Part shown: piece after piece, positions 8,024 through 23,464 of the stretch | How the letters are laid out: each line of letters opens with the position of its first letter | Position numbering within the stretch: the stretch's first letter is position 1 | From: Massilia sp. erpn | GTDB lineage: Bacteria > Pseudomonadota > Gammaproteobacteria > Burkholderiales > Burkholderiaceae_D | Assembly (NCBI RefSeq): GCF_024400215.1 | Contig: NZ_CP053748.1 | Coordinates: 1,612,001 to 1,676,000 of the forward strand | DNA: 64,000 nt | Direction: 5' to 3' | The notes under the pieces: generated by a model | What the model was told of the DNA's origin: nothing | Database searches by the model: none | Seen by the model: the letters and a program-made list of their open reading frames with translations, nothing else | Translations under genes and position numbers: made by a program

Positions 8024-9262
8024 ATGCGATCACACTTCTTCAAGGGTTTGCAGGGACTGACACTCAGTACGCTGATCGGCGCATTGCTGTGCGCTCCGGC
8101 CGCCTATGGCATGGAAACCGTGCGCGTCACCGTGGCCCACTACAGCAATGGCACGGCACCCTACTTCCGCCAGATGGCCGAGCAGTTCGAGCGCGCCAAT
8201 CCCGGCATCCGCATCAAGGTCGAGGATGTAAACTGGGACAGCCTGCTGCAAAAGCTGCAGATCGACGTGGCCGGCGGCGTGAACGCCGATATTTCCATCA
8301 TCGGCACGCGCTGGCTGCCCGAGATGCTGCAGGACGATCTGGTCGAGCCGCTGGACGGCTATATGGACCCGGCTTTCCGCGCGCGTTTCATTGGCGCCTT
8401 CCTCACGCCTGGCCAGGCCCAGGGCAAAACCTATGGACTGCCCATCGCCGCCTCGGTGCGCGGCCTGTTTTACAACAAACAGATGCTGGCCAAGGCCGGC
8501 TTCCCGGACGGTCCCACCACCTGGAGCGATGTGCTGCAGGCAGCGCGCCGCATCAAGCAGAACGGCGGCTATGGCTTTGGCCTGCAGGGCAAGGAGATCG
8601 AGACCGATGTGTACTGGTACTACGCGCTGTGGACGCACGGCGGCGAGCTGCTCGACGCGCAGGGCAAGCCCGCTTTCGCCTCCCCAGCCGCCATCAAATC
8701 GGCGAAGCTGTACCAGTCGCTGATCGGCGAAGGCCTGACCCAGCCCGGCGTCACCAGCTACAGCCGGGAAGACGTGCAGAACCTGTTCAAGCAAGGCCGC
8801 CTGGGCATGATGATCTCGGCCCCCTTCGTGGTGAAGCAGTTGCAGAAGGAAGTCCCCGGCATGCAATGGGGTATCGTCCCTATTCCCACGGCCGGCCGCG
8901 CCGCTACCTTTGCCACCACCGACTCCCTGATCCTGTTCAAGAATTCGCGCGTCAAGCGCTCGGCATGGAAGTTCATTGACTTCCTGTTCACCAAGGCGCC
9001 GCGCGTGGCCTTCACCAGCGCGGAAGGCTTTATGCCGACCACCCAGGAAGAAGCCGCCGATCCCGCCTTCGCCGATCCACTCACGCGCTCCTTTGTCGAC
9101 ATGCTGCCCACGGCCCGCTTCACGCCCACCGTGCAAGCCTGGGAAGACATCGCCAAATCCGTCAGCAACGCCATGCAGGCCGTGTATCTGAACCGGGCCA
9201 CGCCGGAACAGGCACTGGGTGCGGCCGCCGCCGAGGCGGAGCAGGCGCTTAAAAAAAATTGA
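8024..9262 (+). CDS. ABC importer periplasmic carbohydrate-binding protein (family 1)
   Basis: 412 residues with a signal peptide ([16 protein letters not shown], cleavage near residue 29). The family 1 extracellular solute-binding fold is indicated by [37 protein letters not shown] and the hinge-region stretch [19 protein letters not shown]. It captures a sugar or sugar acid in the periplasm for the permeases that follow at once. The stop is 11 bp before the permease ATG. It is divergent from the TonB receptor across 238 bp. No strong ribosome-binding site stands before ATG 8024; an out-of-frame ATG at 8013 is not used. Ligand identity cannot be read, but the locus content points to an amino-sugar acid or oligosaccharide. 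Confidence 0.9.
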
Positions 9263-9273
9263 AGGTGACAGCA

Positions 9274-10143
9274 ATGACGTCCGCACGCAAACCTTGGCTG
9301 CTGATCGCGCCCAGCCTGGCCCTGGCGCTGTTCATCATCGGCTATCCCGTGTTCCACATGGCTTACCAGTCGCTGCACGAGATTTCGCGCTTCGGCGTGG
9401 TGCGCGGCTTCGCCGGCCTGGGCAACTTCACCGGCATCTTCATCGACCCGGTATTTCACGCCACCCTGCTGCGCACCCTGATCTGGACGGTGGCCGTGGT
9501 GGGCGGTTCGCTGCTCATTTCCATGCCGCTGGCCCTGATCCTGAACCAGGACTTCCACGGCCGCTCGCTGGCGCGCACCATCATCATGCTGCCCTGGGCG
9601 GTGTCGCTGACGATGACGGCCATCGTCTGGCGCTGGGCCTTCAACGATGAATTCGGCATGGTCAATCTGAGCCTGCAGGCGCTGGGAGTGATCGACAAGC
9701 CGGTGCAGTGGCTGGCCAGCGCCGCGCTGGCCTTCCCGGCCGAGATCCTGGTCGGCATCATGGTATCGATGCCGTTCACCGTAACCCTGCTGCTGGGCGG
9801 CCTGTCTTCGGTGCCGCAGGATATTTACGAAGCGGCGCGCATGGAAGGCGCCACGGCCTGGCAGCAATTCCGCCTGCTGACCGTGCCCTCGCTGCGGCCC
9901 TTCATCAATATGGCGGTGGTGCTGAACGTGATCTATGTATTCAATTCCTTCCCCATCATCTGGGTGATGACGCAGGGAGGCCCAAGCAACTCCACCCATA
10001 TCCTCGTTACCTATCTGTATGAGCTGGGCTTCCGCCTGGGACGTCCGGGCCAGGCGGCGGCGATCTCGCTCATCATGCTGGCCATCCTGCTGGCGTTTAC
10101 CTGGCTGTATATCCGCATGCAGCCGAAGGAGGAAGCGGCGTGA
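9274..10143 (+). CDS. ABC importer permease (MalF/UgpA type)
   Basis: 289 residues with six predicted membrane helices, beginning [19 protein letters not shown]. The cytoplasmic EAA loop is visible as [20 protein letters not shown], which docks to the ATPase. The frame extends back to a TTG at 9259 that would overlap the binding-protein stop, but ATG 9274 has AAGGTG at the right spacing, so it is preferred. It forms an operon with the binding protein and the second permease. The ATPase partner is not here but on the other arm of the locus (17038-18129). Confidence 0.9.
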
Positions 10144-10985
10144 ATCCGAAACTGAAACGCAGCCTGTGGGCCTGGCTGGCGCTCTCGCCCTTCGTCGTCA
10201 TCATTCTCTTTCCCTTCGCCGTGATGCTCTTCACCGCGCTGAAGCCGGCCGAGGAAGTGTTCAGCTTCCCCACGCGCTGGCTGCCGGTGCAGTGGCGCTG
10301 GCAGAACTTCATCGATATGTGGCATGGGGCGAATTTCGGCCCGGCGCTGAAGAACAGCGTGATCGTCAGCATGGCGTCCACCGCGCTGACGCTGGCCGCC
10401 AGCGTACCGGCAGCGTATGCGATGGCACGTTTCCCCTTCCGTGGCCGCAGCCATTACCGCCAGTTCCTGCTGGTGACGCAGATGCTCTCCCCCATCCTGC
10501 TGGTGCTGGGCCTGTTCAAGATGGCGGCCAATATCTCATGGGATGGCGCCAATCTGGTGGACAGCCACTTCGGCGTAATCGTTGCTTACGCCGCCTTCAA
10601 TATCGCTTTCGCCGTGTGGATGCTGTCGTCCTACTTCGCCACCATTCCGCGCGACCTGGAGGAAGCGGCATGGCTGGAAGGCTGCGGCCAGGGACGGGCC
10701 GCGCTGCGCGTCTTCCTGCCGCTGGCGACGCCGGCCATCGCGGTCAGCTTCATCTTCACCTTCATCAACGCCTGGAACGAATTCGCCGTCGTCTACACCC
10801 TGATCCGCTCGCCCGAAAACAAGACGCTGACGGTGCAGATCGTGGACATGGTGGCCGGCCAGTACACCGTGGAGTGGCAGCTGGTGATGGCGGCCACGCT
10901 GTGCGCAACCATTCCCGTCGCCGTCCTCTTCGCCTGGCTGCAGCGCTTCCTGGTGGGCGGCCTGGCGCTCGGTTCCGTTAAATAA
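10140..10985 (+). CDS. ABC importer permease (MalG/UgpE type)
   Basis: 281 residues with six predicted membrane segments and the EAA loop ([20 protein letters not shown]). It starts with GTG at 10140, overlapping the stop of the previous permease by 4 bp (GTGA), and has AAGGAGG just upstream, so translation is coupled. The family is the carbohydrate-uptake-1 group of binding-protein-dependent permeases. It should pair with the permease at 9274-10143 and the UgpC-type ATPase at 17038-18129. Confidence 0.91.
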
Positions 10986-11010: not shown

Positions 11011-11406
11011 ATGAGCAAACAAAAAATCGCCTACGGCAATGTGCCGTCCGGCGCGGGCGGACAGCGCCTGCCCTTCTCGCCGGCGGTGCGCGCCGGCGAC
11101 TTCGTCTACATCTCGGGCCAGGTGGCGATGAAGGAAAACGGCGAGATCGAATACGGCGGCATCGAGGCGCAGACGCGCACCACCATAGGCAATGTGCAGA
11201 AGGTGCTGGCACTGGCCGGCTGCACCCTGGAAGACGTGATCAAGGTCACGATCTGGCTGGACGACACGCGCGATTTCTGGACCTTCAACCGCGTTTACCA
11301 GGAATACTTCAAAGACCCGATGCCCGCGCGTTCCTGCGTGCAGTCGGCGATGATGGTGGACTGTAAGATCGAGATGGAAGTGGTGGCCTACAAGCCGCTG
11401 GACTAA
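11011..11406 (+). CDS. RidA family enamine/imine deaminase
   Basis: 131 residues of the RidA/YjgF/UK114 family (VRAGDFVYISGQVAMKENGE, GCTLEDVIKVTIWL, ARSCVQSAMM). RidA proteins hydrolyse the enamine or imine intermediates released by PLP-dependent beta-eliminating enzymes. It lies 25 bp after the last permease with AAGGAAAG before the ATG, as the last gene of the importer operon. Its presence beside a locus that also encodes a fold-III PLP dehydratase (15732-17054) suggests a dedicated role: converting that enzyme's 2-amino-acrylate-like product to the keto acid. The active-site Arg of the family is plausibly the one in PARSC. Confidence 0.88.
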   Translation: MSKQKIAYGNVPSGAGGQRLPFSPAVRAGDFVYISGQVAMKENGEIEYGGIEAQTRTTIGNVQKVLALAGCTLEDVIKVTIWLDDTRDFWTFNRVYQEYFKDPMPARSCVQSAMMVDCKIEMEVVAYKPLD

Positions 11407-11413
11407 GCTGGCC

Positions 11414-11452: not shown

Positions 11453-12106
11453 CTATGCGCCGGCGGCTTCCTTGCGGATGGCCGCCAGGCGCGCCACGAA
11501 GGCGGCGGCGTTGGCCGTGACTTCGGCGTAATTGCCTTTCTTCGCCGGCCCCGTCATGCTGCCGCCGATGCCGACGGCGACAGCGCCATACTTGAACCAT
11601 GTGCCCAGGTTTTCCAGCGTCACGCCGCCGGTCGGCATCAGGGCGATATGCGGCAGCGGCGCGCGCAGGGCCGCCACGTAATGCGGGCCGACCGCATCGG
11701 CCGGGAAGACCTTGACGATGTCGGCGCCCGCCTCCGCCGCCTGCACCACCTCGGTCGGCGTCAGCGCGCCCGGCATGGACACGATCTGATAGCGGTTGCA
11801 CAGGCGGATCACGTCCACATTCACATTCGGCGCAATCATGAACTGCGCCCCGGCCAGAATCGCCAGGCGCGCCGTTTCCGTATCCAGCACCGTGCCAGCG
11901 CCAATCAGCACGCGGCCCGCGTGGCGTTCGCACAGGGCCTTGATCACGTCCAGCGCACCGGGCGTGGTGAAGGCCACTTCCAGCGCGCGCACGCCGCCTT
12001 CGATGCAGGCTTCGGCCTGCAGCAAGGCTTCCTGCGCCGAGTCGGCGCGCACGATGGCGACCATGCCCGCTTCGCGGATGGCCTGCAGGACTTCGAGCTT
12101 CATCAT
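11453..12106 (-). CDS. KDPG/KDPGal aldolase (Eda/DgoA type)
   Basis: 217 residues, the usual size for the class I aldolase family that cleaves 2-keto-3-deoxy-6-phospho-gluconate or -galactonate to pyruvate and glyceraldehyde 3-phosphate. Motifs: IREAGMVAIVRADSAQEAL, the phosphate/substrate loop LIGAGTVLD, and the Schiff-base lysine in DIVKVFPADAVGP; MPTGGVTLENLGTW is the late glycine-rich loop. The start overlaps the stop of the kinase gene (ATGA), so the two are co-translated. Which epimer it takes is unclear; 4-hydroxy-2-oxoglutarate aldolase activity is a further family option. Confidence 0.87.
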   Translation of the reverse strand: MMKLEVLQAIREAGMVAIVRADSAQEALLQAEACIEGGVRALEVAFTTPGALDVIKALCERHAGRVLIGAGTVLDTETARLAILAGAQFMIAPNVNVDVIRLCNRYQIVSMPGALTPTEVVQAAEAGADIVKVFPADAVGPHYVAALRAPLPHIALMPTGGVTLENLGTWFKYGAVAVGIGGSMTGPAKKGNYAEVTANAAAFVARLAAIRKEAAGA

Positions 12107-13104
12107 GGCGTCACCAGCTTTCTGGCGCGGGCGACGGCAATCGCACCCAGGCCCGCGAGCTGCGGCTGCAAGTCGTCCGGCACGACCGTGACTTCGCCGG
12201 AGAAGTAATCGTCGTTCTGTACCAGCAGGGCCAAGGCCTGCTTCAGAATCGGCTTGCCGGCGATGATGACGTCGATGCCGGGCCGCATGCGGATGGCATT
12301 GCTGTTCTTCAGCGTCAGCAGGTCCGCGCCCAGCACGGCGCCCAGCAGGAAATTGGCGCGGTCGTTGCGCTGGTAGATGGTGAACTGGTCCAGGGTGCGC
12401 ACATTGAAGCAGGCACGCCCCAGGCCGATGCGCTTGGCCAGCTCCGCGCCGGCCAGCAGCATCTCGGGGTTGATCTCGGTGGCGAAATCGCGGTCCAGCG
12501 AATCGGCCAGGATCGTATTGTGGGTGATGATGTGCAGCAGTTCGCCGGACAAGGTGGTGACGCAGCCGGTGATCTTGTTATTGCCATCGATGCAGACGAA
12601 CTTCGAATGCGATCCCGGCATGATCAACATGGCCGGGCCGCGCAGCGACAAGCGCTCGATCAGGCCCATGACCTCGACCTCTTCGCCGCGCATCATGTCC
12701 ATCTCTTCGCAGTTGTGCAGCCCGATATTCTCCACATCATTGCGCACACCGGGAACAAACCAGATAGGCTTGCTGAAAATATGCGGCAGCAGCTCGCACT
12801 CCATGCCCTGCGCCAGATCGGCGATGCCGGCGGGCGCCAGCACATGCGGAATCTCGTGCAGGCCGACATTCGAGGTGATCATGCCCGAAGCGAGCACCAG
12901 GTCCACCTCGTCCGGCGTGGCCCGGCCTTTTTCCAGCGCGGCGGCGATCGTATCGCGCACCGCTTCATCGAGCTTGCTACGGCTGCCGGTGATGGCGGTG
13001 TCGCGCACCCCCACCTGGGTGGCGGCCACACTGACCGCCTTGCCATCGCGCCAAAGCGTGATGCGGGTATTCGTCGTGCCGGTATCGATCGTCAATATCT
13101 TCAT
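12103..13104 (-). CDS. dgoK: 2-dehydro-3-deoxygalactonokinase-type kinase (DgoK family)
   Basis: 333 residues of the DgoK family, an ASKHA-fold kinase: phosphate-1 loop MKILTIDTGTTNTRITLW at the N-terminus, and MLIMPGSHSKFVCIDGN in the middle. It should phosphorylate 2-keto-3-deoxygalactonate, or the gluco epimer, at O6 to feed the aldolase encoded directly downstream with a 4-bp overlap. No galactonate dehydratase (DgoD) is present, so its substrate probably comes from another source; the fold-III PLP enzyme at 15732-17054 is my candidate supplier. It is transcribed away from the LysR gene across 296 bp. Confidence 0.86.
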   Translation of the reverse strand: MKILTIDTGTTNTRITLWRDGKAVSVAATQVGVRDTAITGSRSKLDEAVRDTIAAALEKGRATPDEVDLVLASGMITSNVGLHEIPHVLAPAGIADLAQGMECELLPHIFSKPIWFVPGVRNDVENIGLHNCEEMDMMRGEEVEVMGLIERLSLRGPAMLIMPGSHSKFVCIDGNNKITGCVTTLSGELLHIITHNTILADSLDRDFATEINPEMLLAGAELAKRIGLGRACFNVRTLDQFTIYQRNDRANFLLGAVLGADLLTLKNSNAIRMRPGIDVIIAGKPILKQALALLVQNDDYFSGEVTVVPDDLQPQLAGLGAIAVARARKLVTP

Positions 13105-13400
13105 TTGATTTGAATAAAAAATTAAATGGCAGGCACCGTTATATTCAAGCTCAATATTATCGCCATTATTACCTTTTCAAATATAACCGTTTCCCGCCAA
13201 TTGCGACAGCGACGAATATTAAGGCAGTCGTTCAAAAAAAATTAAGGTGACTCAAGCCTTTGATTTTATGCGCTTTCACGCCTTGCATTGGCATGTTTCA
13301 GCGCGCCCCGCACACAATTTCAATAATGGAATTGTGAAATTCATTTGATCTGGGTTATTATTGATACCGATTGCTCCACGATTATCAATATAACAGCAAT
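13105..13400. promoter_or_regulatory. AT-rich divergent control region dgoK/LysR
   Basis: These 296 bp separate the divergent kinase and LysR genes and are much richer in AT than the flanks. They contain an inverted repeat CACAATT...AATTGTG (13313-13336) about 65 bp before the LysR start. This is a plausible LysR-type site for autoregulation or control of dgoK. No small gene was seen here. Confidence 0.45.
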
Positions 13401-14294
13401 ATGGCACGCAAGCTCCCCCCGCTTAATTCACTGCGCGTATTTGAAACGGCTGCCCAGCGCCTGAGCTTCACGCGCGCGGCGGAAGAGCTGTGCGTGACCA
13501 CGGCGGCGGTCAGCCACCAGATCAAACTGCTGGAAGACCACCTGGGCATCAAGCTGTTTGTGCGCACCAATAATGTGCTGGCCCTGACCGTGGCGGGCGA
13601 ACGCTATCTGCCGCGCGTGCGCGAAGCGTTCCGCGCCCTGGCCCAGGCCACCGATGAACTGATGGACGAGAACAACGCGGTGCTGAAGGTGGCGGTGGCG
13701 CCAACCTTCGGCGCGAAGTGGCTGGTGCCGCGCCTGTACCGCTTTCTGGCCCAGCATCCCGAGATCCGCGTCGAAATCAATACCGACGGCGAACGCAATT
13801 ACCGCAACAGCGACATCACCATCGATTCGCGCCGCGCCGGCTTTGCCGATCTCAGTGTCGAACCTTTCCTGTCCACGGGCCTGATCCCGGTGTGCAGCCC
13901 GGAGCTGAAGGCGCGCATCCGCACGCCTTCCGATCTGGCCAGCGTCACGCTGCTGCATGAAGTCAGTCCGCTCAACGACGCCGACTATCCCAACTGGGAA
14001 GAGTGGCTGTCGGCGGCGGGCGTGGGCGATGTCGACGTGCGCCAGGGCTTGGTGTTCTCGCAGGCGCTGATGGCGCTGCAGGCGGCCATTGACGGCCAGG
14101 GCGTGGCGCTGGCCCAGCGCCTGCTGATCGATTACGACGTGGCGGCGGGCCGCCTGGTGCGCCTGTTCGATATTGCCACGCCGCTGCGCCTGCACTACTA
14201 CCTGATCCACGCGCCGGAAACGCGCAAGAACCCGGCCTTCCAGGCCTTCCGCAGCTGGCTGCTGGCCGAGTTGAATCATTCCGCCGGCGAGTAG
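13401..14294 (+). CDS. LysR family transcriptional regulator, GcvA-like
   Basis: 297 residues from ATG 13401. The first 60 carry the LysR winged helix-turn-helix (LPPLNSLRVFETAAQRLSFT, then TTAAVSHQIKLLEDHLG). The remainder is the periplasmic-binding-like effector domain, with the GcvA-subgroup appearance (KVAVAPTFGAKWLVPRLYRF). A TTG at 13371 would add ten residues, but the MARKLPPLN start is typical of the subgroup. It is placed centrally between the two arms of the catabolic locus, and its 3' end overlaps the D-aminoacylase stop by 19 bp. It is the likely pathway-specific regulator; its effector is unknown. Confidence 0.88.
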   Translation: MARKLPPLNSLRVFETAAQRLSFTRAAEELCVTTAAVSHQIKLLEDHLGIKLFVRTNNVLALTVAGERYLPRVREAFRALAQATDELMDENNAVLKVAVAPTFGAKWLVPRLYRFLAQHPEIRVEINTDGERNYRNSDITIDSRRAGFADLSVEPFLSTGLIPVCSPELKARIRTPSDLASVTLLHEVSPLNDADYPNWEEWLSAAGVGDVDVRQGLVFSQALMALQAAIDGQGVALAQRLLIDYDVAAGRLVRLFDIATPLRLHYYLIHAPETRKNPAFQAFRSWLLAELNHSAGE

Positions 14295-15754
14295 CGTTCT
14301 TCCTGCCGCCGCAGCACACGGCCATGGCGCGCCGCTGCCGGCACGCCGCCTTCCAGCGCCACTTCCCCGTTCACCAGCACGCAGACGATGCCGGCCGCCG
14401 CTTGTTTCGGCTGGGCGAAACTGGCGCGGTCGGCCACCGTCGCCGGATCGAACAGCACCAGATCGGCCCAGCAACCGACGGCGACACGGCCGCGCTGTTT
14501 CAGGCCGAAAGTGTCAGCCGAGAGGCTGGTCATGCGGCGGATGGCTTCCGGCAGCGTAAACAGCTGCTCCTCGCGGCAGTAGTGGCCCAGCACGCGCGGG
14601 AAGCTGCCCCACAAGCGCGGATGGGGATGGGCGTCGTGCGGCAGGCCGTCAGAGCCAATCATGGTATGTGGATAGGACAGCACGCGCCGCACATCATCCT
14701 CGCGCATCTGGAAATACACGGCGCCGGCCGGATGCAGGCGGCGCGCCGCTTCCTTCTGGTCCACGCCCCATTCGGCGGCGATATCCGAGAGATCGCGGCC
14801 CGCCATCTGCGGGTGGGCCTGCGACCAGCTGACCATGATGCGGATCACGCCATCCACGTAATCGGGATCGAGCACGGTGGAACCGGCCACATAGGGATAG
14901 GCATCAAGGCCCACGGCCTGCGTACGGCGGCGCTCCGTGATCAGGGCCAGCGTCTCGCTGCTGCGGCCCCAGTTGGCGGGACCGGCGCATTTGTGGTGCG
15001 ACAGCACCACCGGCAGGCGCGCCGCGCGGCCCGCGTCACAGGCTTCGTTGAGCGCATCGATCACGCCATCGTATTCGTCGCGGATATGCGAGGTGTAGAT
15101 GCCGCCATGTTCGGCCACCACGCTGGCGAGGGCAATCACCTCGTCGTTGTTGGCATGGCTGCTGGTCTTGTAGAACAGGCCGGAACTGAAGCCGAGCGCG
15201 CCGGCACGTATGCCTTCATCGAGCAGGGCGCGCATGGCGTCGATCTCCTGCGCCGTGGCGGGCGCCTCGGTGTCGCGCATGGCGTTCACGCGCAAGGTCG
15301 AGTGGCCAACCAGCATGCCGACATTGACGGCGGGCCGCGCATCCTGCACCGCGCTGGCATACTCCGCCACGCTGGCATAGCGGTAATCGGGCTGGGTGCC
15401 GATCAGCGACAGCGGTGCAGGCGGCGCCATCGTGGCCTGCCACGGCGCGAGGCTGATGCCGCAATTGCCGGTGATGACGGTGGTGACACCCTGGGTCAGT
15501 TTGGGCAGCATGGCTGGGGAATCCAGTACCTGCCGGTCGTCATGAGTGTGGACGTCGATGAAGCCGGGAGCCAGGGCCAGACCTTGCGCATCGATCAGGC
15601 GCGCGCCGGGCGGCGCTTGCAGCGATCCGGCGGCGGCGATGGCGGCGATGCGGCCTGCGCGCAGCGCCACGTCGGCGAGGTAGGCTGGACTGCCGCTGCC
15701 GTCGTAGACCTCGGCGTTGCGGATCAGCAGATCAGAAGAAGGTGTTGATGGCAT
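14276..15754 (-). CDS. N-acyl-D-amino-acid deacylase (D-aminoacylase family)
   Basis: 492 residues of the amidohydrolase-superfamily D-aminoacylase group. GFIDVHTHDD carries the metal ligands His69 and His71, and GNCGIS has Cys98, the additional ligand known in this family; GSDGLPHDAHPHPR near the end holds the late Asp. The annotated reaction is removal of the acyl group from N-acyl-D-amino acids. ATG 15754 is chosen; it overlaps the preceding gene by 23 bp, and ATG 15772 is possible. In this context N-acetyl-hexosaminate, formally an N-acetyl D-amino acid, is a reasonable substrate. Last gene of the six-gene operon. Confidence 0.87.
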   Translation of the reverse strand: MPSTPSSDLLIRNAEVYDGSGSPAYLADVALRAGRIAAIAAAGSLQAPPGARLIDAQGLALAPGFIDVHTHDDRQVLDSPAMLPKLTQGVTTVITGNCGISLAPWQATMAPPAPLSLIGTQPDYRYASVAEYASAVQDARPAVNVGMLVGHSTLRVNAMRDTEAPATAQEIDAMRALLDEGIRAGALGFSSGLFYKTSSHANNDEVIALASVVAEHGGIYTSHIRDEYDGVIDALNEACDAGRAARLPVVLSHHKCAGPANWGRSSETLALITERRRTQAVGLDAYPYVAGSTVLDPDYVDGVIRIMVSWSQAHPQMAGRDLSDIAAEWGVDQKEAARRLHPAGAVYFQMREDDVRRVLSYPHTMIGSDGLPHDAHPHPRLWGSFPRVLGHYCREEQLFTLPEAIRRMTSLSADTFGLKQRGRVAVGCWADLVLFDPATVADRASFAQPKQAAAGIVCVLVNGEVALEGGVPAAARHGRVLRRQEERYSPAE

Positions 15755-17054
15755 GGTGCACGGTGTAGTCATCGTCCACTGCCAGCAGCAGCGTCCATTT
15801 ATCGAAAGTGGTACAGGGGTGGGAAATGCCGCAGCCGACCAGATCGCCCACCTGCAGCGATTCGCATAGCGCATGGCCTTCCGGCAGGCGCAGATAGGCA
15901 TGCTGGTCGTTCATCTTCTCGATGCGCGCGCCTTCGGGCAAAGCCTGCGGCTTGGCGTCGCCGGGACGGTGGGCCAGCAGGGGCAATGGCAGGTCGATAT
16001 CGTAGGAAGCATCGCGCTTGCCCATGGATAGAATCGCCAACGTCGGCTCGGGACGCGACAGCACCACGCTCCATACTTCCAGCGCGGGCAGCAGGCCGTC
16101 CTTCAGCACCGCGCCTTCGCGCTCGCCCAGCTCCTGCGTCAGGCCGTGGTAAAAGCCATGGTCATTGGTCAGGTAGCAGCCGCTGCGCAGCACCGGCAGC
16201 ACGGGACGCGACAGGCCATCGATGCGCGAGAAACCGCGCGCCACCAGGTCGAAATAGGCAGAGCCGCCGGCGGAAAGCAGAATCTGCGTTCCGCCGAACA
16301 GGCCTTCCTTGTCGGCCTGGCGCACGATCTCCACGATCTGTGCGACGAAGGCGGATACCGCCTCCACATCGGCCGCGCGGTCATGGCTGACCAGCAGGCC
16401 TTCATAGCCTTCGATGCCGGCCAGCTCCAGCCCCGGCGCCTGCGCCACGGCACGCGCCAGCTCCAGCACCTGTTGCGCGCTGCGGCAGCCGGCGCGCTTG
16501 CCGGCGATGCCCAGCTCCACCAGCAGCGGCAAGGGGCGCTGCAAACCGCTGTGCTGCACCGCCTGCGACAGGCGGGCCACGCCTTCGGCCGAATCGACCA
16601 GGGCGAAGAACTCGAAGCCCGCGTCTTCCTTCATCAGATGCAGCACGGCGCGGATATCGGCCGGCGCCACCAGCTCATTGGCCAGCAGCACGCGGCGCAC
16701 GCCGAAGCGGTAAGCGATCTGCACCTGGCTGATGGTGGCCAGCGTGATGCCCCAGGCGCCATTGCCCAGTTGGGCGCCGAACAGCTGGGGGCTCATGGTG
16801 GTCTTGCCATGCGGCGCCAGCACCGCACCGTAGCGCTGGCAGAAGCGCTGCATCCAGTCCAGATTGTGCTGCAGGGCCGACTGCTTCAGCACAGCCACGG
16901 GGAAGCTGGTATCGCCCGCCAGCACATTCCAGCGCTGTACGCCGATGGCGCCCTGGCGCAGTGGTTCCGTGATGGGCAAGCCCTTCACGCCCGGTTGCAG
17001 CAATTGCTCTTCAAGGGAAGCGAGCGCCAGCCCGCCGTCAGGCAGCTTGTTCAT
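15732..17054 (-). CDS. Fold-type III PLP amino-acid deaminase (D-serine dehydratase / D-threonine aldolase-like)
   Basis: 440 residues. An alanine-racemase-like N-terminal barrel carries the PLP lysine Lys84 in [12 protein letters not shown]-terminal beta domain carries the metal-binding HxC motif as H412-P-C414, as in eukaryotic-type D-serine dehydratases. These metal-dependent enzymes act on D-configured beta-hydroxy-alpha-amino acids. D-glucosaminate is such a compound, and known bacterial D-glucosaminate dehydratases are PLP enzymes whose aldolase side activity was reported to need manganese (from memory). ATG 17054 gives the MNKLPDGG start and overlaps the ATPase gene by 17 bp; the frame upstream of it lies inside that gene. 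Natural substrate not proven. Confidence 0.83.
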
Positions 17055-18129
17055 GGGGATGATCCTGGTTGAGTCGCGCCCCGGTGGCGCTGTCGAAATA
17101 GTGTAGACGCGTTTCCGGCAACAGCAGCGAGAGCGCATCGCCCGGCTGCACGGCCAGCCGTCCGGCGGCGGCCACGCACAGCGGCTGGCCGCCCAGCTTC
17201 GCATACAGATGGGTTTCGGCGCCGGTCGGCTCGACCACCTCCACGCTCACGCGCACCTCGCCCTGTCCGGCGACAATGTGCTCGGGACGGATGCCAAGCG
17301 TGACGCGGCTGCCATGTTCGATGCCCGCTGCCTGCACATGGATGCGCGTGCCGTCGGCGCAGACCAGGCTTGCGCCGTATGTCTCACGCTGGATTTCACC
17401 TTCGATGAAATTCATGCCGGGCGAGCCGATAAATCCCGCCACGAAAAGATTGGCAGGACGATCGTACAGCTCCAGCGGCGCGCCCACCTGCTCGATACGG
17501 CCCGCATTCATCACCACGATGCGGTCGGCCATGGTCATGGCCTCGATCTGGTCGTGGGTGACGTAGATGATGGTGTTTTTCAGGCGCTGGTGCAGAGCCT
17601 TGATCTCGGTGCGCATCTGCACGCGCAGCTTGGCATCCAGGTTCGACAGCGGTTCGTCGAACAGGAACAGCGCCGGCTCGCGCACGATGGCGCGGCCCAT
17701 GGCCACGCGCTGCCGCTGGCCGCCGGACAGGGCGCGCGGCAGGCGCTCCAGATACGGCGTCAGATTCAGCATGCGCGCCGCCGCTTCGATGCGCGGGCGG
17801 AAGCTCGATTCCGGCTCCTTGCGCAGGCGCGGGCCGAAAGCGATGTTTTCGTACACCGACAGATGCGGATACAAGGCGTAACTCTGGAACACCATGCCGA
17901 TATTGCGCTGCTGCGGCGGCAGCTCATTGGCGCGCTTGCCGTCGATCAGCAAGGTGCCGCCGCTGATATCTTCAAGTCCCGCCACCATGCGCATCAGCGT
18001 GGTTTTGCCGCAGCCGCTGGGACCGACCAGCACAATGAACTCGCCGTGCGCGATGCGCAGGTCGACGCCATGCACCACCTGGTTATCGCCGTAGCGCTTG
18101 AAAATACCCTGGAGCTGAACGGTTGCCAT
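17038..18129 (-). CDS. ugpC: ABC importer ATPase (UgpC/MalK type)
   Basis: 363 residues with Walker [10 protein letters not shown] (36-44), Q-loop [20 protein letters not shown], signature [14 protein letters not shown], Walker [15 protein letters not shown] and the switch His in VTHDQ. A C-terminal TOBE-type regulatory region follows (about 235-350). It energises carbohydrate-uptake-1 importers. No permease is adjacent; the permease pair and binding protein at 8024-10985 lack an ATPase, so this is their probable partner. The gene lies 12 bp after the SDR stop and overlaps the next gene, so it is co-translated within the operon. The gene symbol is a family name and does not imply glycerol-3-phosphate transport. 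Confidence 0.91.
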
Positions 18130-18141: not shown

Positions 18142-18909
18142 TTAAAAATCTTCCAGCGTGAGTTCCTGCGCCATCACGCGGTTGCCCGCCATCAGGCCAC
18201 CATCGACCGGCAGCACCACGCCGGTGATCACGCGCGCGGCTGAGGAGGACAGGAACAGCGCCGCATCGGCGATATCGTCCGGCGTGGCGAAGTCGCCCAG
18301 AGGGTACCACTTCTTCAGCTTCTCCAGGATTTGCGGATCCTTGTCCACGCGCGCCTGCCAGGCCTGGGTTTTCACCGTGCCGGGACAGACGATGTTCGCG
18401 CGCACGCCGCGCCGGCCGCTTTCCAGCGCCAGCGCCTTGGTATAGCTCACCAGCGCCGCCTTGGCCGCGCTGTAAGCAGGATGGCCCAGCGCCGTCAGGC
18501 CGTTGACGGAGCCGATCAGCACGATGCAGCCCTGGCCGCGCTCCAGCATCGCCGGACGCACCGCCTCCACCGTGTTATAGGTACCGTGCAGGTTCAAGTT
18601 GATATCCGCATGCCAGGATTCCGGCGTGGTCGCCGCCAGCGTGGAGCAGGCGGCGGCACCCGCATTCGCCACCAGCACATCGACCGCGCCGTGCCGGGCC
18701 ACCGCCGCATGCACGGCAGCCTTGGTGGCGGCCGCGTCGGTGATATCGGCCTGCAGCGGCGTGCAATTGGCGATGGACGCCGCCAGCTCGGCCAGCTGCT
18801 GCGCGTCGCGGTCCAGCGCCAGCACATGGTCGCCCTGCGCCGCAAAACGTTCGCACAGGACGCGCCCGATACCGCCACAGGCGCCGGTGATAAGGACTAC
18901 GCGGCTCAT
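18142..18909 (-). CDS. SDR family oxidoreductase
   Basis: 255 residues of a classical short-chain dehydrogenase. The cofactor glycine motif is TGACGGIG (8-15), with NAGA in strand 4, and the catalytic Ser, Tyr and Lys lie in GSVNGLTALGHPAYSAAKAA. An Asp follows strand 2 (LALDRDA), which favours NAD over NADP. It might oxidise the anomeric carbon of a (N-acetyl)hexosamine or another sugar hydroxyl and thereby feed the pathway. The start codon overlaps the stop of the upstream gene (ATGA). Substrate unassigned. Confidence 0.85.
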   Translation of the reverse strand: MSRVVLITGACGGIGRVLCERFAAQGDHVLALDRDAQQLAELAASIANCTPLQADITDAAATKAAVHAAVARHGAVDVLVANAGAAACSTLAATTPESWHADINLNLHGTYNTVEAVRPAMLERGQGCIVLIGSVNGLTALGHPAYSAAKAALVSYTKALALESGRRGVRANIVCPGTVKTQAWQARVDKDPQILEKLKKWYPLGDFATPDDIADAALFLSSSAARVITGVVLPVDGGLMAGNRVMAQELTLEDF

Positions 18910-20162
18910 GATGCGCTCCGATCGAAATGGTGAAGGGCCGCGCCCAGCGCATCCAGACGTTCACTGCGCAGCAAGCCATGGTTATAAAACGCGAAATCGC
19001 GGATGCCCAGCGCCGCCAGTCCCGCCAGCGCCTGCGGCAATTGCGCCCCATCGCCCAGGTCCGGCGCCCCCGGCCGCAAAATCGCCCGCACTTTCACGGC
19101 TGAGCCCATGTCCGATTTGGGGTCAGACCCCAAGGTGGACACGGACTCGCCCGTAGTGGGCAGGCGGCGCAGGGTGTCGTGGGCGTCGGCGATGACGCGG
19201 GCGGCGTCGGCTTCGTAGAAGGGGACTTCGAGCCAGTCGGCTGCTGCCGCCAGGGCGCGCAGGTCGCTGCCTTCGATCCAGCTTTGGGCAGTGGGGCGCT
19301 GCACGGTCGGGATCACGGCCAGTTGCACGCCCGCTGGCAGTCCGGCGCGGATGGTGCTTACCACTTCAGTCACCACTGCCTGGCGCTGGCGGATGTAGGC
19401 GGCCAGCTCCTGGTCGTCCAGCAGGTCGGCGGCGAGCCAGGCGGCGGCTTGCGCTTCGATGGCGTCGACCGGAGCTTTCAGGTAGGCGTCGATGCGGCCG
19501 GCGATGCGCTGGCGCAGGCCGGCGCCGTCGATGCCGGCATCACCTGCGGCTTTGACGCAGGCGTCGCAGAAGCACAGGCCGAGCATGGTGTCTAGCCAGA
19601 CATTGCTGCGCAGCTGGGCAAATTCGTGGTGGTAGCCGTGGGCATAGGGCAGCCAGCCCGGGGTTTCCAGCACCACGCTGCGCACGCCCTGTCTGGCGGC
19701 GTCGCATGCGAGCGCCACGGCGTATTCGAATACCGCCGGCTGTGCTGGACACAGGCTGTAGACATAGCTGTCGCCAAAGGCATTGCGCGCCGTGTACTGT
19801 GGATAGGCCGCGCCCAGGCGGCTGTTATGCAGCAGCACCGTCCACGCATGCACGTTCAGGCGGCCATCGTCGGCCAGCTCGGCGAAAAGCCGGCGCAGGG
19901 CCGGATCGGAATGCGGCTGGGCGCGCAGTTCACCATAGCGCTGGTGATCGGGATCGAAATAGACCACGCCATCTTCCGGGAAGACGACGCGGCCGCCGCT
20001 GCGCGCATTCGGGCGCAGGAATTTGCCGGCGTGATAGCTGGCCGCCAGCGTCACGCCATTCAGGCCGCGCTCCAGCGTCTTGGCGATGAAGGCGGGCACG
20101 CCCTCTTCCGCCACGTCCCATGGATAGGCGTACAGCGATCGGTATGCCGAAGTTTTCTTCAT
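18906..20162 (-). CDS. Unrecognised protein, probably TIM-barrel glycoside-hydrolase-like
   Basis: 418 residues from ATG 20162, which overlaps the GH31 stop (TAATG). I do not recognise the family with certainty. The opening (SLYAYPWDVAEEGVPAFIAK, then LERGLNGVTLAASYHAGKF) and later strands such as VHAWTVLLHNS and SVVLETPGWLPYAHG look like a beta/alpha barrel of the kind found in uncharacterised glycoside hydrolases. A Cys-rich CFCDAC motif lies mid-protein. No signal peptide, so it is presumably cytoplasmic. Near the C-terminus the coding sequence contains an imperfect GTCC...GGAC palindrome (19110-19140), read in frame as STLGSDPKSDM. Its role in the operon is open; a sugar-processing step is an inference from context. 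Confidence 0.6.
   Translation of the reverse strand: MKKTSAYRSLYAYPWDVAEEGVPAFIAKTLERGLNGVTLAASYHAGKFLRPNARSGGRVVFPEDGVVYFDPDHQRYGELRAQPHSDPALRRLFAELADDGRLNVHAWTVLLHNSRLGAAYPQYTARNAFGDSYVYSLCPAQPAVFEYAVALACDAARQGVRSVVLETPGWLPYAHGYHHEFAQLRSNVWLDTMLGLCFCDACVKAAGDAGIDGAGLRQRIAGRIDAYLKAPVDAIEAQAAAWLAADLLDDQELAAYIRQRQAVVTEVVSTIRAGLPAGVQLAVIPTVQRPTAQSWIEGSDLRALAAAADWLEVPFYEADAARVIADAHDTLRRLPTTGESVSTLGSDPKSDMGSAVKVRAILRPGAPDLGDGAQLPQALAGLAALGIRDFAFYNHGLLRSERLDALGAALHHFDRSAS
19110..19140. repeat. GTCC...GGAC palindrome inside a coding sequence
   Basis: Two 15-nt arms, TTGGGGTC and GACCCCAA at their cores, flank a single A with three mismatches. The outer GTCC/GGAC ends resemble those of the palindromes after minE and prfA. 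It is read in frame by the host gene. Confidence 0.6.
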
Positions 20163-23100
20163 TATTTGCCTGCCTTGTCGCCCTCGAAACCAATGACTGT
20201 AGCATTGGCCCAGTTGGCGCACACTTTGGCCGCGTCCTTACCGTGCGCGCCCAGGGTGCGCAGACTCAGAAGCGAGACACCACGGATGTCCAGCTCCGGT
20301 TTGACCACGGCCGGCGCCGCGATCAAGCCGCTATCGAACAGCAATTTGCCGTCGCCGTGCACCTGGAATTGCAGGCCACCCGCCTGGCGGCAGCTGTCGT
20401 CGATACCGACGTCGGCGCGGAACAGCTGCCAGTCGCCGCTCAGGCGGTAATCGACCTGGCTTTGCGCCGCCACCGGCAAGCCCTTGCTGAATTTCAGGCC
20501 ATTCATCTGCAGCAGGCGCGGCTTGCTCAGATTGCGGCTGAGGTCCGGCTTCGCTTCCGACAGCGCCAGCTGCTGCTTGGCGCGGTTCGGCGCGGGCGCT
20601 TCCAGCACACGGAATTCGGAAATGGTGATCGGGTTCACCTGCGGCGGCAGGAAGGCGTTGAAGGCCTTGGCCTGCTTGCCGTTGCCATTGGTGGCGGTGA
20701 CCATCGGATCGTTGGTGCTCTCGTCCTGGCCCTGCTCCTGGGTGCTCAGCACGCGGAAGCGGAACAAGCTGCCCGCCTTGGCCGGGAATTCGACCTTCTG
20801 CTTGCCCTCCACCATTTTCAGGCGGCCGGTGAAGACCGGCTGGCCCCATTCGCCATTGCGGTCGCCCAGATAAATCTCGAAGTCGCGCACCTGTCCGCTC
20901 TGCCAATGCTTGTCGTTGCGCGGCGAGATTTCGAAGCCGTTGATCATGCGCCGTTCGCCCAGCGCCAGCGTGAATTCGTGCGCGCCGGTCTTCTGCGACT
21001 GGTCGCGGATGGTGCGGAACCAGGTGTCGGGCTTGTCGTCGAAAGCGTTTTCCAGCTTGTGGCCCGGTTCTTCGGCCGGACGGTTCAGCACCAGGATGCT
21101 GTCGGCCGCCACCGCGTTACCCAGGTCGGGCGCGGCGCCGAAGGCCGGCGTCTGCGCCAGCACGGCATCGCTGGCGATGGCCAGGTCGAAGCGGTAGGCC
21201 GCGCGCACGCTGGTCTTCTCCGATTTGGCGTGCACCGTGCCGTATTTGGCTTGCGCGTCATAGAACCAGCCCGCGCCGCCCTTTTCGAAGTCGCCCAGCG
21301 TGGCGTATTCCTTCAGTGCCTTGCCGCCCAGCGCCAGCGCTTGCGGCTTGACGCGGGTATGCACTTGCAGGCGGTAGACGCGCTGCTCTTCCTGTCCCGC
21401 ATACTTGCCCTGCACCGCGCCGACCTCCACGCTGATATCGCCGGCGCGGTCCTGCGGCGCCTGCACCGTGAACTGCTGGCTGCTGAAAGCGCCGTCCTTG
21501 TACTGGCGCGTGTTGCCGTCATCCTCGTACATGGTGAAGGCGGACTGGCCATGCGGATAGATATCCAGGGTCAGCACATCCTTCGGCACCTGGCCGTCGT
21601 ACAGGGCGGATGGGTACATCGGGATGATGGCGCCGGCGCGCACCAGCACCGGCAGCTTGTCCAGCGTGACCGGATAATCGATCACTTTGCCGGATGCTCC
21701 CGCTTCAATCACGCGGCCATCCCAGTAATCGACCCACTGCCCCTGCGGCAGATAGATATTCTTGCGCCAGCCCTTGCTGGCCGCCTGGCTGCGGTAGACC
21801 GGCGCCACGAGGAAATCGCGGCCCAGCAGGAACTGGTATTTGTACGCTTCATCGTTGGCATGCGGATCGGCCGGATGGTCCCACATCAGGCCACGCACGA
21901 TGGGCGCGCCGGTCTGCTCGGCTTCGCGCGAATAGGTGTACATATACGGCGTCAGGCGCATTTTCAGCTTCAGGTAGTCGCGGTTGATGCTGCGGTAAGG
22001 CTCGTCGAACCACCACGGATGCTTGCGTTCATTTTTGGCCCAGCCGGACATCCCCATCAGCACCGGCGTGAAGGCCTTCCATTGCAGGTCGCGCGTATAG
22101 GTTTCCGGGCTGCCGCCGAAGATGCCGTCCACATCGCCCGTGGCGTAAGCCTGGCCCGACAGGCCGGAACCGATCAGGGTCGGAATATGCCAGCGGATAT
22201 AGTCCCAGCTGCCCGACTGGTCGCCGGTCCAGGTCACGGCGTAGCGCTGCATGCCGGCCCAGCCCATCACGGTCCAGATGAAGGGGCGCGCATCGGAATT
22301 GGACAGGATGCCGTCGGCCGCCGCCTTGTTCGCATCAAGCGCAAACTGGTAGCCCTGGCCGGTCCAGGCCACGTCCAGCTTCTGCGCGCGGCTGCCGGCC
22401 GTGCCGACTTCCCACTTGATCTTGTCAACGCCGTTCTCGGTCCACAGGCCGGTGCGGAAGCCGTACTGCTTCAAGCCTTCCACCACTTTCGGCAGATCGG
22501 TGTAGCCGCAGCCATAACCGTCGTTGGGCAGAATCCAGCCGCCCGGCATATCGTGTTCGCGGTATTTGGCGGCCACCGACAGCACCACATCGGGCGTAGT
22601 GCCGGTCGGACCATCGCTCCAGCCGGGCGGCGTGGTGCCGGGCTTCTTCACATTGTCCTTGTCGTTGTAGCAGTCGGCGTCGCCGTACTCGTAGGCCCAG
22701 CGCGGCAGCAGGGCGGCGCGGCCGGTCAGCTCGGTGTAGGCATCCAGCACCTTGTGGATCGAGCCGCCCGCGAAGTAATAGGCGTCGAAGCGGTTCTCGC
22801 GGTGGCCTGCGGTGATGAACTCATTCGAGCGGAAATCGTAACTGCCATTGGCCCAGGTGTTGCGCAGCACGCCGTAGCCGCCGCTGGTCATATAGAAGGG
22901 CGCCGGGCTGGGACGGTCGCCCTCCTCCCAGCCGCCCGAATACGAGATCGGCAGCTCCTTACCCTTGAAGCTGTAGGCGCCGTTCTGCTGGCCGCCGCCG
23001 AAGAAGTGCTCGTTCGCCGTGGTGGACAGGGTCTGGAAGCTGCTGTCGGCCGACAGTTCCAGCGGCTGCATCTCGCGCCAGACCAGGGTCTGGTTATCGG

Positions 23101-23464
23101 CCTTGTACAGCTCGAAGCGCAGCGGCTTCTTGTAGATGCGCAGGGCCAGCGCCTCGGTCTGGATCAGGTGATGGTCAGGCAGCTCGCTGTGGCGGAAGGC
23201 CACGGCGGCGTAATCGGTCTTCAGCACGATGGGCGCGGCCTTGTCGCCCGCGCCGCTGAACTTGCCCTGCGGGCCGGCCAGGATGCGGAACACATCCGGG
23301 CGCAGCAGCTCCACGCGCAGCGCCACGCCCTTGTCCGTCGCCAGTTCCAGCTTGCTGTCCTTCTGGGCGAATTTGTTCAGATTGCCGACCGGCGCGGCGC
23401 TGGCGCTCAGGCACAGCAGGGTGGCGGCGGTGGCGAACAGGGTTTTGCGAAGCACTGGCAGCAT
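20162..23464 (-). CDS. Exported glycoside hydrolase family 31 enzyme with C-terminal binding modules
   Basis: 1100 residues from ATG 23464, which begins the signal peptide LRKTLFATAATLLCLSASAA. The GH31 barrel holds the likely nucleophile Asp in KLDVAWTGQGY (about 363) and the acid/base Asp in WTGDQSGSWD (about 413), followed by TGDVDGIFGGSPETYTRDLQ. A proximal beta-domain follows, then a discoidin-like module (about 775-955) and a C-terminal NPCBM-like module. The active-site wording resembles bacterial glucosyl/isomaltosyl-transferring GH31 enzymes (from memory). Alpha-glucosidase, transglycosidase or alpha-N-acetylgalactosaminidase activity are all known in the family. It heads the six-gene operon and is predicted to be periplasmic or exported. 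The longer frame starts with GTG 23494 without a ribosome-binding site. Confidence 0.87.
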   Translation of the reverse strand: MLPVLRKTLFATAATLLCLSASAAPVGNLNKFAQKDSKLELATDKGVALRVELLRPDVFRILAGPQGKFSGAGDKAAPIVLKTDYAAVAFRHSELPDHHLIQTEALALRIYKKPLRFELYKADNQTLVWREMQPLELSADSSFQTLSTTANEHFFGGGQQNGAYSFKGKELPISYSGGWEEGDRPSPAPFYMTSGGYGVLRNTWANGSYDFRSNEFITAGHRENRFDAYYFAGGSIHKVLDAYTELTGRAALLPRWAYEYGDADCYNDKDNVKKPGTTPPGWSDGPTGTTPDVVLSVAAKYREHDMPGGWILPNDGYGCGYTDLPKVVEGLKQYGFRTGLWTENGVDKIKWEVGTAGSRAQKLDVAWTGQGYQFALDANKAAADGILSNSDARPFIWTVMGWAGMQRYAVTWTGDQSGSWDYIRWHIPTLIGSGLSGQAYATGDVDGIFGGSPETYTRDLQWKAFTPVLMGMSGWAKNERKHPWWFDEPYRSINRDYLKLKMRLTPYMYTYSREAEQTGAPIVRGLMWDHPADPHANDEAYKYQFLLGRDFLVAPVYRSQAASKGWRKNIYLPQGQWVDYWDGRVIEAGASGKVIDYPVTLDKLPVLVRAGAIIPMYPSALYDGQVPKDVLTLDIYPHGQSAFTMYEDDGNTRQYKDGAFSSQQFTVQAPQDRAGDISVEVGAVQGKYAGQEEQRVYRLQVHTRVKPQALALGGKALKEYATLGDFEKGGAGWFYDAQAKYGTVHAKSEKTSVRAAYRFDLAIASDAVLAQTPAFGAAPDLGNAVAADSILVLNRPAEEPGHKLENAFDDKPDTWFRTIRDQSQKTGAHEFTLALGERRMINGFEISPRNDKHWQSGQVRDFEIYLGDRNGEWGQPVFTGRLKMVEGKQKVEFPAKAGSLFRFRVLSTQEQGQDESTNDPMVTATNGNGKQAKAFNAFLPPQVNPITISEFRVLEAPAPNRAKQQLALSEAKPDLSRNLSKPRLLQMNGLKFSKGLPVAAQSQVDYRLSGDWQLFRADVGIDDSCRQAGGLQFQVHGDGKLLFDSGLIAAPAVVKPELDIRGVSLLSLRTLGAHGKDAAKVCANWANATVIGFEGDKAGK

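What the first reader, a model, noticed from the sequence alone, without database searches (positions are those of the whole stretch)
8024..23464. Putative pathway for an oxidised N-acyl amino sugar (hexosaminate) in a two-armed locus
Seen: sugar-type ABC importer, RidA, KDPG-type aldolase, DgoK-type kinase, LysR regulator, D-aminoacylase, HxC-motif fold-III PLP enzyme, importer ATPase, SDR and GH31 in one locus. Known: N-acetyl-hexosaminate is formally an N-acetyl-D-amino acid, and hexosaminate is a D-configured beta-hydroxy amino acid, so the acylase and the PLP enzyme fit as deacylase and dehydratase; RidA clears the enamine; kinase and aldolase finish to pyruvate and glyceraldehyde 3-phosphate. 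As I remember, a marine-bacterial pathway for oxidised chitin monomers uses similar logic. Inference: this locus encodes a terrestrial relative with ABC import and an SDR that may make the acid. DgoK favours the galacto series as an alternative.
Basis: partly seen in the sequence, partly recalled or inferred. Interest (0 to 1): 0.75.

Follow-up and report, generated by a model that had tools for sequence, protein, structure and literature searches.

The report
Oxidative GalNAc-breakdown gene cluster
A bacterium related to Massilia appears to eat the amino sugar N-acetylgalactosamine by first oxidising it and then treating it like a D-amino acid, in place of the textbook route that starts by adding phosphate; this is a prediction from genomes, not yet tested at the bench.

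Summary
The logic (N-acylase, PLP deaminase, RidA, kinase, aldolase) is that of the marine Ong pathway for oxidised GlcNAc, but this is not that pathway: the acylase forms its own clade with an invariant pocket signature, the genome has no AA10 LPMO, and the kinase is DgoK, not KdgK. Evidence points to GalNAc. (1) The GH31 resembles alpha-GalNAcases. (2) Among 145 genomes of the window's family, 13 have this GH31: in 9 of the 10 without the cluster it lies 2.4-2.6 kb from the aldolase gene of the canonical GalNAc (aga) route; in the 3 with it, it lies in or beside it and that aldolase is absent. (3) Six sister clusters carry aldolases with the galacto-type residue. Best reading: GalNAc is released, imported, oxidised by the SDR, deacetylated, deaminated to 2-keto-3-deoxygalactonate, phosphorylated and cleaved. 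Nothing is shown biochemically. Weak points: the window's own aldolase looks gluco-type, two Lysobacter genomes carry both routes, and the 418-aa protein's step is open. No such route appeared in the paper listings seen.

The parts
4750..7857 (-). TonB-dependent receptor with CarboxypepD_reg domain; probable outer-membrane uptake (membership in the system is tentative)
   Evidence: 52-53% identical receptors lie beside the GH31 orthologue in aga-type loci L137 and L140 (2 of the loci read)
8024..9262 (+). sugar ABC importer, solute-binding protein (signal peptide by eye)
   Evidence: orthologues 59-66% in Leeia, Solimicrobium, Sapientia, Undibacterium clusters
9259..10143 (+). ABC importer permease (MalF-like position)
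   Evidence: orthologues 71-74% in sister clusters
10140..10985 (+). ABC importer permease (MalG-like position)
   Evidence: orthologues 67-75% in sister clusters
11011..11406 (+). RidA (enamine/imine deaminase; OngD counterpart)
   Evidence: 75-81% in sister clusters
11453..12106 (-). KHG/KDPG-type aldolase; PTGG (Thr) at the V154/T161 site, Ala-Ile in strand beta-1 (by eye)
12103..13104 (-). DgoK-type 2-keto-3-deoxygalactonate kinase
   Evidence: PF05035; best PDB match 2-oxo-3-deoxygalactonate kinase 3r1x, E 4.4e-13; no NCBIfam match
13371..14294 (+). GcvA/DsdC-type LysR regulator (start may be 13401)
14276..15748 (-). D-aminoacylase-like deacetylase of a distinct clade (signature F193, G290, T292, Y298, Q348 in PpOngB numbering); proposed N-acetylgalactosaminate deacetylase
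15732..17054 (-). fold-III PLP enzyme with D-ser_dehydrat domain (OngC counterpart); proposed galactosaminate ammonia-lyase
17038..18129 (-). ABC importer ATPase (UgpC/MalK type)
18142..18909 (-). SDR; proposed GalNAc 1-dehydrogenase (acidic residue 33 after beta-2, NAD-type by recalled rule; S134-Y146-K150)
18906..20162 (-).
20162..23494 (-). secreted (signal peptide by eye) GH31 + F5/8-C + NPCBM, nearest to GH31 alpha-N-acetylgalactosaminidase

Best explanation
The locus encodes an oxidative, initially non-phosphorylating route for N-acetylgalactosamine (GalNAc). Inferred steps: (1) the secreted GH31 frees GalNAc from alpha-GalNAc glycans; (2) a TonB receptor and the ABC importer bring it in; (3) the SDR oxidises C1 to N-acetylgalactosaminate (via the lactone); (4) the 418-aa hydrolase, whose gene overlaps the SDR gene, opens the lactone or frees the aldonate from a glycoside; (5) the acylase removes acetate; (6) the PLP enzyme, helped by RidA, removes water and ammonia to give 2-keto-3-deoxygalactonate; (7) DgoK phosphorylates it; (8) the aldolase gives pyruvate and glyceraldehyde 3-phosphate. 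It stands in for the aga route (kinase, deacetylase, isomerase, tagatose-bisphosphate aldolase). Shown here: the gene set, its conservation, the acylase clade and the genomic swap. Not shown: any activity.
For: GH31: best PDB matches are the GH31 alpha-GalNAcase (E 2.9e-120; next 3.6e-57); the two recalled catalytic Asp align. Swap: of 13 GH31-bearing genomes among 145 of the family, 9 have AgaZ (PF08013) 2449-2572 bases from GH31, 3 have the acylase clade of this cluster, 1 has neither, 0 have both; four aga-type loci were read. AgaZ is absent from 14 of 14 betaproteobacterial genomes with the cluster that were searched. In the 80 loci, all 12 with GH31 in reach also have a DgoK-like gene, found in 20 of 80. 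Galacto series: DgoK here versus a KdgK-like PfkB kinase in the one Ong-like cluster whose kinase I read (L075); aldolases of six sister loci have Val at the KDPG/KDPGal-deciding site, and 4 of 4 tested pass the KDPGal-aldolase cut-off. Source of the acid: no AA10 LPMO in 14 of 14 betaproteobacterial genomes with the cluster, LPMO in 5 of 5 distinct genomes with Ong-like clusters searched; the SDR was seen with the first kind, not with the second. Acylase: own clade at 100/100, signature invariant in 18 of 18 rows (17 genomes), metal and carboxylate ligands kept.
Against: The window's own aldolase has Thr at the deciding site and scores over the cut-off for KHG/KDPG, not KDPGal; in the Undibacterium clusters no aldolase was matched in reach. 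Both Lysobacter genomes searched also have AgaZ, an AgaS-like gene and LPMO; in L. antibioticus the GH31 stands beside the aga genes, on another contig than this cluster. Five of 16 genomes with the cluster have no GH31 orthologue at E up to 1e-100. The SDR's substrate cannot be read from sequence, and the 418-aa protein's step is undecided. Absence of AgaZ alone is weak evidence, as only 18 of 145 family genomes have it. Genomes are related, so the Fisher values overstate significance.
Confidence: 0.7

Rival explanations
1. Terrestrial version of the Ong pathway: the substrate is N-acetylglucosaminate (from chitin oxidation by others, scavenged).
For: Same chemistry and gene kinds as ongB, ongC, ongD; the acylase scores 465 bits against PpOngB; the window's aldolase is KDPG-type; true OngB-clade clusters exist in the same order.
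Against: Acylase outside the OngB clade and lacking its Ala193/Ser290/Ser292/Gln298; DgoK instead of KdgK; no AA10 LPMO in the genome; GH31 alpha-GalNAcase relative in the operon.
Confidence: 0.12
2. A catabolic locus for N-acyl-D-amino acids (D-Ser/D-Thr type) that happens to lie beside sugar genes.
For: Acylase and PLP enzyme are homologues of D-aminoacylase and D-serine deaminase; the regulator is GcvA/DsdC-like.
Against: DgoK-like kinase, sugar importer, SDR and 418-aa protein recur with the acylase across Oxalobacteraceae, Leeia and, without the importer, Lysobacter; two pocket Met of AfDam are replaced by Ala and Gln.
Confidence: 0.06
3. Variant of the best explanation: the route handles a GalNAc-ended disaccharide. 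The SDR oxidises the reducing end after import and the 418-aa protein is a cytosolic glycosidase that splits hexosyl-galactosaminate, as OngA does for GlcNAc-GlcNAc1A in the periplasm.
For: The 418-aa model resembles GH153/GH42 glycosidases and shows no signal peptide by eye; in Chitiniphilus (L075) its gene follows an ong-ordered set and a PfkB kinase, and none of the four other L075 genes scanned was a GH20; the importer's nearest NCBIfam models, all far below cut-off, are for oligosaccharides.
Against: GH31 exo-action would give the monosaccharide; the 418-aa family was not matched beside GH31 in the four aga-type loci listed, so it goes with the aldonate step, which a lactonase would fit as well.
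Confidence: 0.35

Closest known systems
Ong pathway for GlcNAc1A, Pseudoalteromonas prydzensis (PMC9537276)
   Same: D-aminoacylase-like deacetylase, fold-III PLP deaminase and RidA act on an N-acetyl-hexosaminate; a kinase follows, then (hypothesised there) an aldolase
   Different: own acylase clade, DgoK not KdgK, ABC importer not SSS, LysR not RpiR, SDR and 418-aa protein added, no LPMO in the genome and no GH20 in the locus; proposed galacto substrate
Canonical aga GalNAc pathway (AgaK/AgaA/AgaS/AgaZ)
   Same: same proposed sugar; orthologous GH31 beside it in related genomes
   Different: phosphorylation first versus oxidation first; none of its enzymes seen in the locus
DgoK/DgoA branch of D-galactonate catabolism (recalled)
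   Same: kinase family; aldolase type in sister clusters
   Different: 2-keto-3-deoxygalactonate would come from an amino acid by PLP chemistry, not from galactonate dehydratase
GH31 alpha-N-acetylgalactosaminidase (6m76, 7f7q/7f7r)
   Same: sequence, both recalled catalytic Asp
   Different: substrate of the window enzyme untested
PgaB GH153 domain and GH42 (fold of the 418-aa protein)
   Same: TIM-barrel glycosidase fold
   Different: 10-15% identity over the matched part; own family; no signal peptide; function unknown

Membership tests
Ong pathway (GlcNAc1A) | acylase in the OngB clade with Ser290/Ser292/Gln298 | tested here: not met
   window acylase in a separate 100/100 clade with Gly/Thr/Tyr at these places
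Ong pathway (GlcNAc1A) | fold-III PLP deaminase | tested here: met
   41-48% to PLP enzymes beside OngB-clade acylases
Ong pathway (GlcNAc1A) | RidA gene (OngD) | tested here: met
Ong pathway (GlcNAc1A) | PfkB-type KDG kinase (KdgK) | tested here: not met
   kinase is PF05035 DGOK
Ong pathway (GlcNAc1A) | AA10 LPMO in the genome | tested here: not met
   0 matches to PF03067
Ong pathway (GlcNAc1A) | activity on GlcNAc1A | not testable with these tools
   needs an assay
Subtype V amidohydrolase / D-aminoacylase fold family | Cys97/His222/His252 metal site, Asp368, carboxylate ligands Lys254/Tyr285/Arg379 | tested here: met
   all conserved in the window acylase
AfDam-type D-aminoacylase | hydrophobic pocket (Phe191, Met254, Leu298, Met346) | tested here: inconclusive
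   Phe kept, the Met254 place is Ala, the place of PpOngB Gly348 is Gln where AfDam has Met; loop position 298 aligns uncertainly
GH31 alpha-N-acetylgalactosaminidase (GH31_18) | nearest to characterised alpha-GalNAc members, catalytic Asp pair | tested here: met
   (residue numbers recalled); CAZy subfamily assignment itself not run
KDPGal pathway | DgoK kinase | tested here: met
KDPGal pathway | KDPGal aldolase (Val at 154) | tested here: not met
   Thr in the window and NCBIfam KDPGal model at 157 of 207 bits; met in six sister loci by residue, 4 of 4 tested by NCBIfam
Canonical aga pathway | AgaS and AgaZ in the genome | tested here: not met
   no PF08013 match; best AgaS-model match 43 bits, against 402-407 bits for the gene beside GH31 in aga-type loci (all below the model's cut-off of 529)
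GH153/GH42 (418-aa protein) | fold and family membership | tested here: inconclusive

The most novel reading that the evidence does not exclude
An undescribed GalNAc catabolic route, oxidation-first and amino-acid-like, has taken the place of the phosphorylating aga pathway in part of the Betaproteobacteria and reached Lysobacter; it contains a GalNAc 1-dehydrogenase of the SDR family, an N-acetylgalactosaminate deacetylase clade, and an enzyme family (the 418-aa protein; 1858 relatives found, no functional name among the 120 listed) whose activity on amino-sugar aldonates is new. A broader form of it, with the 418-aa protein and SDR as a pair, reaches Alphaproteobacteria and Acidobacteria.
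Probability: 0.55. Interest if true: 0.85.

Novelty: new variant of a known kind. Interest (0 to 1): 0.75.

Why it matters
The 2022 paper on the Ong pathway states that catabolism of GlcNAc, GalNAc, ManNAc and MurNAc is in all cases initiated by phosphorylation (PMC9537276, text read). A GalNAc route that begins with oxidation would break that rule, explain how bacteria with a GalNAc-releasing GH31 but without aga genes use the sugar, give a function to a large unnamed protein family, and warn genome annotators that an absent aga operon does not mean an inability to use GalNAc. It is testable with a handful of purified enzymes and cultivable strains.

Tried and rejected
Chitin/LPMO reading: rejected as main reading because. 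Plain N-acyl-D-amino-acid locus: rejected on co-conservation. NCBIfam names for SBP and SDR: too general to name a substrate. SDR against PDB: one close structure without a functional name (5tt0), the rest generic. Whether the 418-aa protein is a glycosidase or a lactonase could not be settled; the fold search gives a shared fold only. Paper searches for GalNAc-aldonate catabolism gave nothing on the point in the listings seen: searches (1 paper; 20 of 39 listed; 7 papers; 15 of 16 listed; 15 of 120 listed, mostly unrelated) had the two Ong papers and an Aeromonas chitin paper that looked for Ong genes (PMC11653859, passages). These searches cover only open-licence PMC papers. Position 298 of PpOngB aligns by sequence to Tyr of the window and to an Arg of AfDam, while the paper pairs it with AfDam Leu298; I therefore use the column as a marker of the clade, not as proof of a contact.

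Rows dropped: neighbourhood tables keep tblastn hits with coverage of at least 0.45 and E up to 1e-12 (coverage 0.3-0.4 and E up to 1e-8 or 1e-10); one short acylase hit (L103) was left out of the tree; one row of that tree (L124, outside both clades of interest) has an internal stop; the weak partial PF08013 hit of G267 (35.9 bits) counts in the 18 but was left out of the Fisher test (17). L071 was not held and not searched. The ORF picker sometimes chose a wrong-strand frame; gene identity was taken from tblastn. The EfNag31A residue numbers (D455, D508), the NAD rule for SDRs and the DgoK/DgoA background beyond the passages are recalled. On re-checking for this report I corrected three statements: the acylase rows come from 17 genomes, the Duganella/Rugamonas PLP gene is nearest to the window's, not to that of Chitiniphilus, and L. 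antibioticus GH31 is on another contig than its cluster.
Full report
What is there. The stretch 8024-23494 holds four blocks: SBP-permease-permease-RidA on the + strand (8024-11406), aldolase and DgoK on the - strand (11453-13104), a LysR gene on the + strand (13371-14294), and a second - strand arm GH31, 418-aa protein, SDR, ABC ATPase, PLP enzyme, acylase (23494 down to 14276). In that arm the joins are -1, -4, +12, -17 and -17 bases with the starts I chose, so it reads as one operon. GH31 and SBP have signal peptides by eye; the 418-aa protein has none. A TonB-dependent receptor lies just outside (4750-7857). The whole genome is 6.148 Mb in one contig. The nearest named loci are Massilia sp. 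BJB1822 and Pseudoduganella violacea, with 96-100% identity for the genes in reach other than the 418-aa one, which is 90-91%.

Comparison with the Ong pathway. I read parts 1-4 of 9 of PMC9537276 and parts 1-4 of 8 of PMC12017989. OngB deacetylates GlcNAc1A, OngC (fold-III PLP) deaminates the product to KDG, KdgK phosphorylates it, RidA (OngD) is needed for growth on GlcNAc1A. The pocket residues given there are Ser290, Ser291, Ser292, Gln298, Glu226 and small residues at 193, 256, 348, with Thr at 292 in D-aminoacylases. In an alignment of 60 acylases all 18 rows of the PpOngB clade have A193, S290, S292, Q298. The window and its kin, 18 of 18 rows (17 genomes), have F193, G290, T292, Y298, Q348; metal ligands and carboxylate binders are kept. 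In the tree the OngB clade and the window's clade are each at 100/100; AfDam lies elsewhere, with weak support (79/39, 81/74) for the order between the groups. So the window enzyme is neither OngB nor clearly AfDam-like.

Two kinds of cluster. The scan for the 418-aa protein kept the best 80 of 130 loci. Their neighbourhoods differ. Kind A (window, Undibacterium, Solimicrobium, Sapientia, Leeia, Lysobacter) has acylase at 66-74% (97% in the two nearest), SDR, PLP, RidA, a DgoK-like kinase and often the importer. GH31 is within 10 kb in 12 of the 80 loci, in different orientations, and all 12 also have a DgoK-like gene, seen in 20 of 80. The kinases of Leeia and Lysobacter are a different branch, 29-33% to the window's where matched; one of them, L036, was checked as PF05035. 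Kind B (Chitiniphilus, Andreprevotia, Chitinolyticbacter; L072, L075, L078, L079) has PLP-RpiR-acylase-RidA in the order of ongCRBD, then the 418-aa gene; in L075 the gene between RidA and the 418-aa gene is a PfkB kinase nearest to KdgK (338 bits, below the model's cut-off of 400), and no SDR was matched. AA10 LPMO occurs in 5 of 5 distinct kind-B genomes, in 0 of 14 kind-A Betaproteobacteria and in 2 of 2 kind-A Lysobacter. This fits a gluco pathway fed by LPMO for kind B and another source of acid, the SDR, for kind A. The SDR keeps Ser134, Tyr146, Lys150 in 59 of 59 rows, and an acidic residue at 33 (Asp in 56, Glu in 3), which by a recalled rule favours NAD. Many alphaproteobacterial and acidobacterial loci keep the 418-aa gene next to an SDR, some with acylase or RpiR genes; a Gfo/Idh/MocA gene was confirmed in two of them.

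Why GalNAc. [quoted passage not shown] Second, its neighbours elsewhere: in 145 genomes of the family, 13 have a GH31 orthologue, 4 have the kind-A acylase (over 700 bits; one of the 4 has no GH31) and 18 have PF08013. Of the 13, 9 have AgaZ 2449-2572 bases from GH31, 3 have kind A, 1 (G403) neither, none both. Reading four aga-type loci showed beside GH31: L140, an AgaS-family gene (407 bits), a ROK kinase, AgaZ (PF08013), AgaR (338 bits, cut-off 260), NagA (225.7 bits, cut-off 225.65) and a sugar transporter; L138, AgaZ over its cut-off, ROK kinase, AgaS-family gene; L137, AgaZ over its cut-off and an AgaS-family gene; L136, PF08013, ROK and a SIS-domain gene. Third, AgaZ is absent from 14 of 14 kind-A Betaproteobacteria. 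Against the AgaS model, these 14 reach at most 43 bits, where the aga-type loci reach 402-407 and the two Lysobacter 410-441. Fourth, the galacto-type tail: DgoK in kind A, and aldolases with Val at the site that decides between KDPGal and KDPG (V154/T161; PMC4915726, passages) in six sister loci (two genomes of the Leeia genus, two Lysobacter, Solimicrobium, Sapientia); 4 of 4 tested exceed the NCBIfam KDPGal-aldolase cut-off.

Results against it. The window lineage (window, L055, L056) has a different aldolase, Thr at that site, KHG/KDPG by NCBIfam, although strand beta-1 has the Ala-Ile of KDPGal aldolases by eye; in PMC4915726 a V154T KDPGal aldolase still preferred the galacto-type product (table passage), so activity is possible but unproven. 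In the Undibacterium clusters no aldolase was matched in reach. The two Lysobacter genomes keep both routes, and in L. antibioticus GH31 goes with aga on another contig. GH31 is missing from 5 of 16 kind-A genomes. The genomes compared are related, so the Fisher values (3e-11 for GH31 against either route) are not clean probabilities. In Duganella and Rugamonas loci the 418-aa gene is paired with a PLP gene 71-74% identical to the window's, without acylase, SDR or kinase in reach, which I cannot explain.

How it most likely works. GalNAc is released by GH31 and imported; the SDR oxidises it at C1; the 418-aa protein, whose gene overlaps the SDR gene by 4 bases, opens the lactone or splits a glycosyl-aldonate; acylase, PLP enzyme with RidA, DgoK and aldolase then follow. 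That the 418-aa gene was not matched beside GH31 in the four aga-type loci listed, yet occurs in kinds A and B, ties it to the aldonate. All catalytic assignments are inferences.

Novelty. The chemistry is of the Ong kind, so this is a new variant: another sugar series, another source of the acid, another kinase, an additional protein family. The listings showed no report of such a route for GalNAc; in the review PMC12118421 the passages seen describe a five-step route through phosphorylated intermediates, and the word 'oxidative' occurs 0 times. A Bacteroides study of a GalNAc locus (PMC11992087, outline and passages) likewise starts with a GalNAc kinase.

Noticed in passing
L057, L058, L060, L062, L114 (Duganella, Rugamonas, Oxalobacteraceae), around 10001-12500: The 418-aa family is paired with a PLP gene 71-74% identical to the window's (44-46% to that of Chitiniphilus), but no acylase, SDR or DgoK lies within 10 kb; in L062 an amino acid permease and a class-V aminotransferase are next to it.
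   Followed up: partly
L090-L134, mostly Alphaproteobacteria, also Acidobacteria and Gemmatimonadetes loci: The 418-aa gene is usually next to an SDR gene (SDR matched in 56 of the 80 loci), sometimes with acylase, RpiR or a Gfo/Idh/MocA gene nearby: perhaps a wider family of pathways.
   Followed up: partly
PDB 9g5m/9gv8: This structure, named only 'Amidohydrolase family protein', falls in the OngB clade with the Ser290-Ser291-Ser292/Gln298 signature, so it is probably an N-acetylglucosaminate deacetylase.
   Followed up: partly
   Followed up: no
G257:C18:26360-29648 (Lysobacter sp. ISL-50): The GH31 orthologue is matched in two overlapping pieces in different frames, so it may be broken or misassembled.
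   Followed up: no
G403:C38:180376-183774: A GH31 orthologue (78%) in the same genus with neither AgaZ nor the acylase found in the genome and no aga-like neighbour matched within 10 kb.
   Followed up: partly
window 40278-53381, - strand: A 4367-codon open frame; very long protein, not examined.
   Followed up: no
window 23671-24591, + strand: A signal-peptidase-I-like (Peptidase_S26) gene divergent from the GH31 operon.
   Followed up: no
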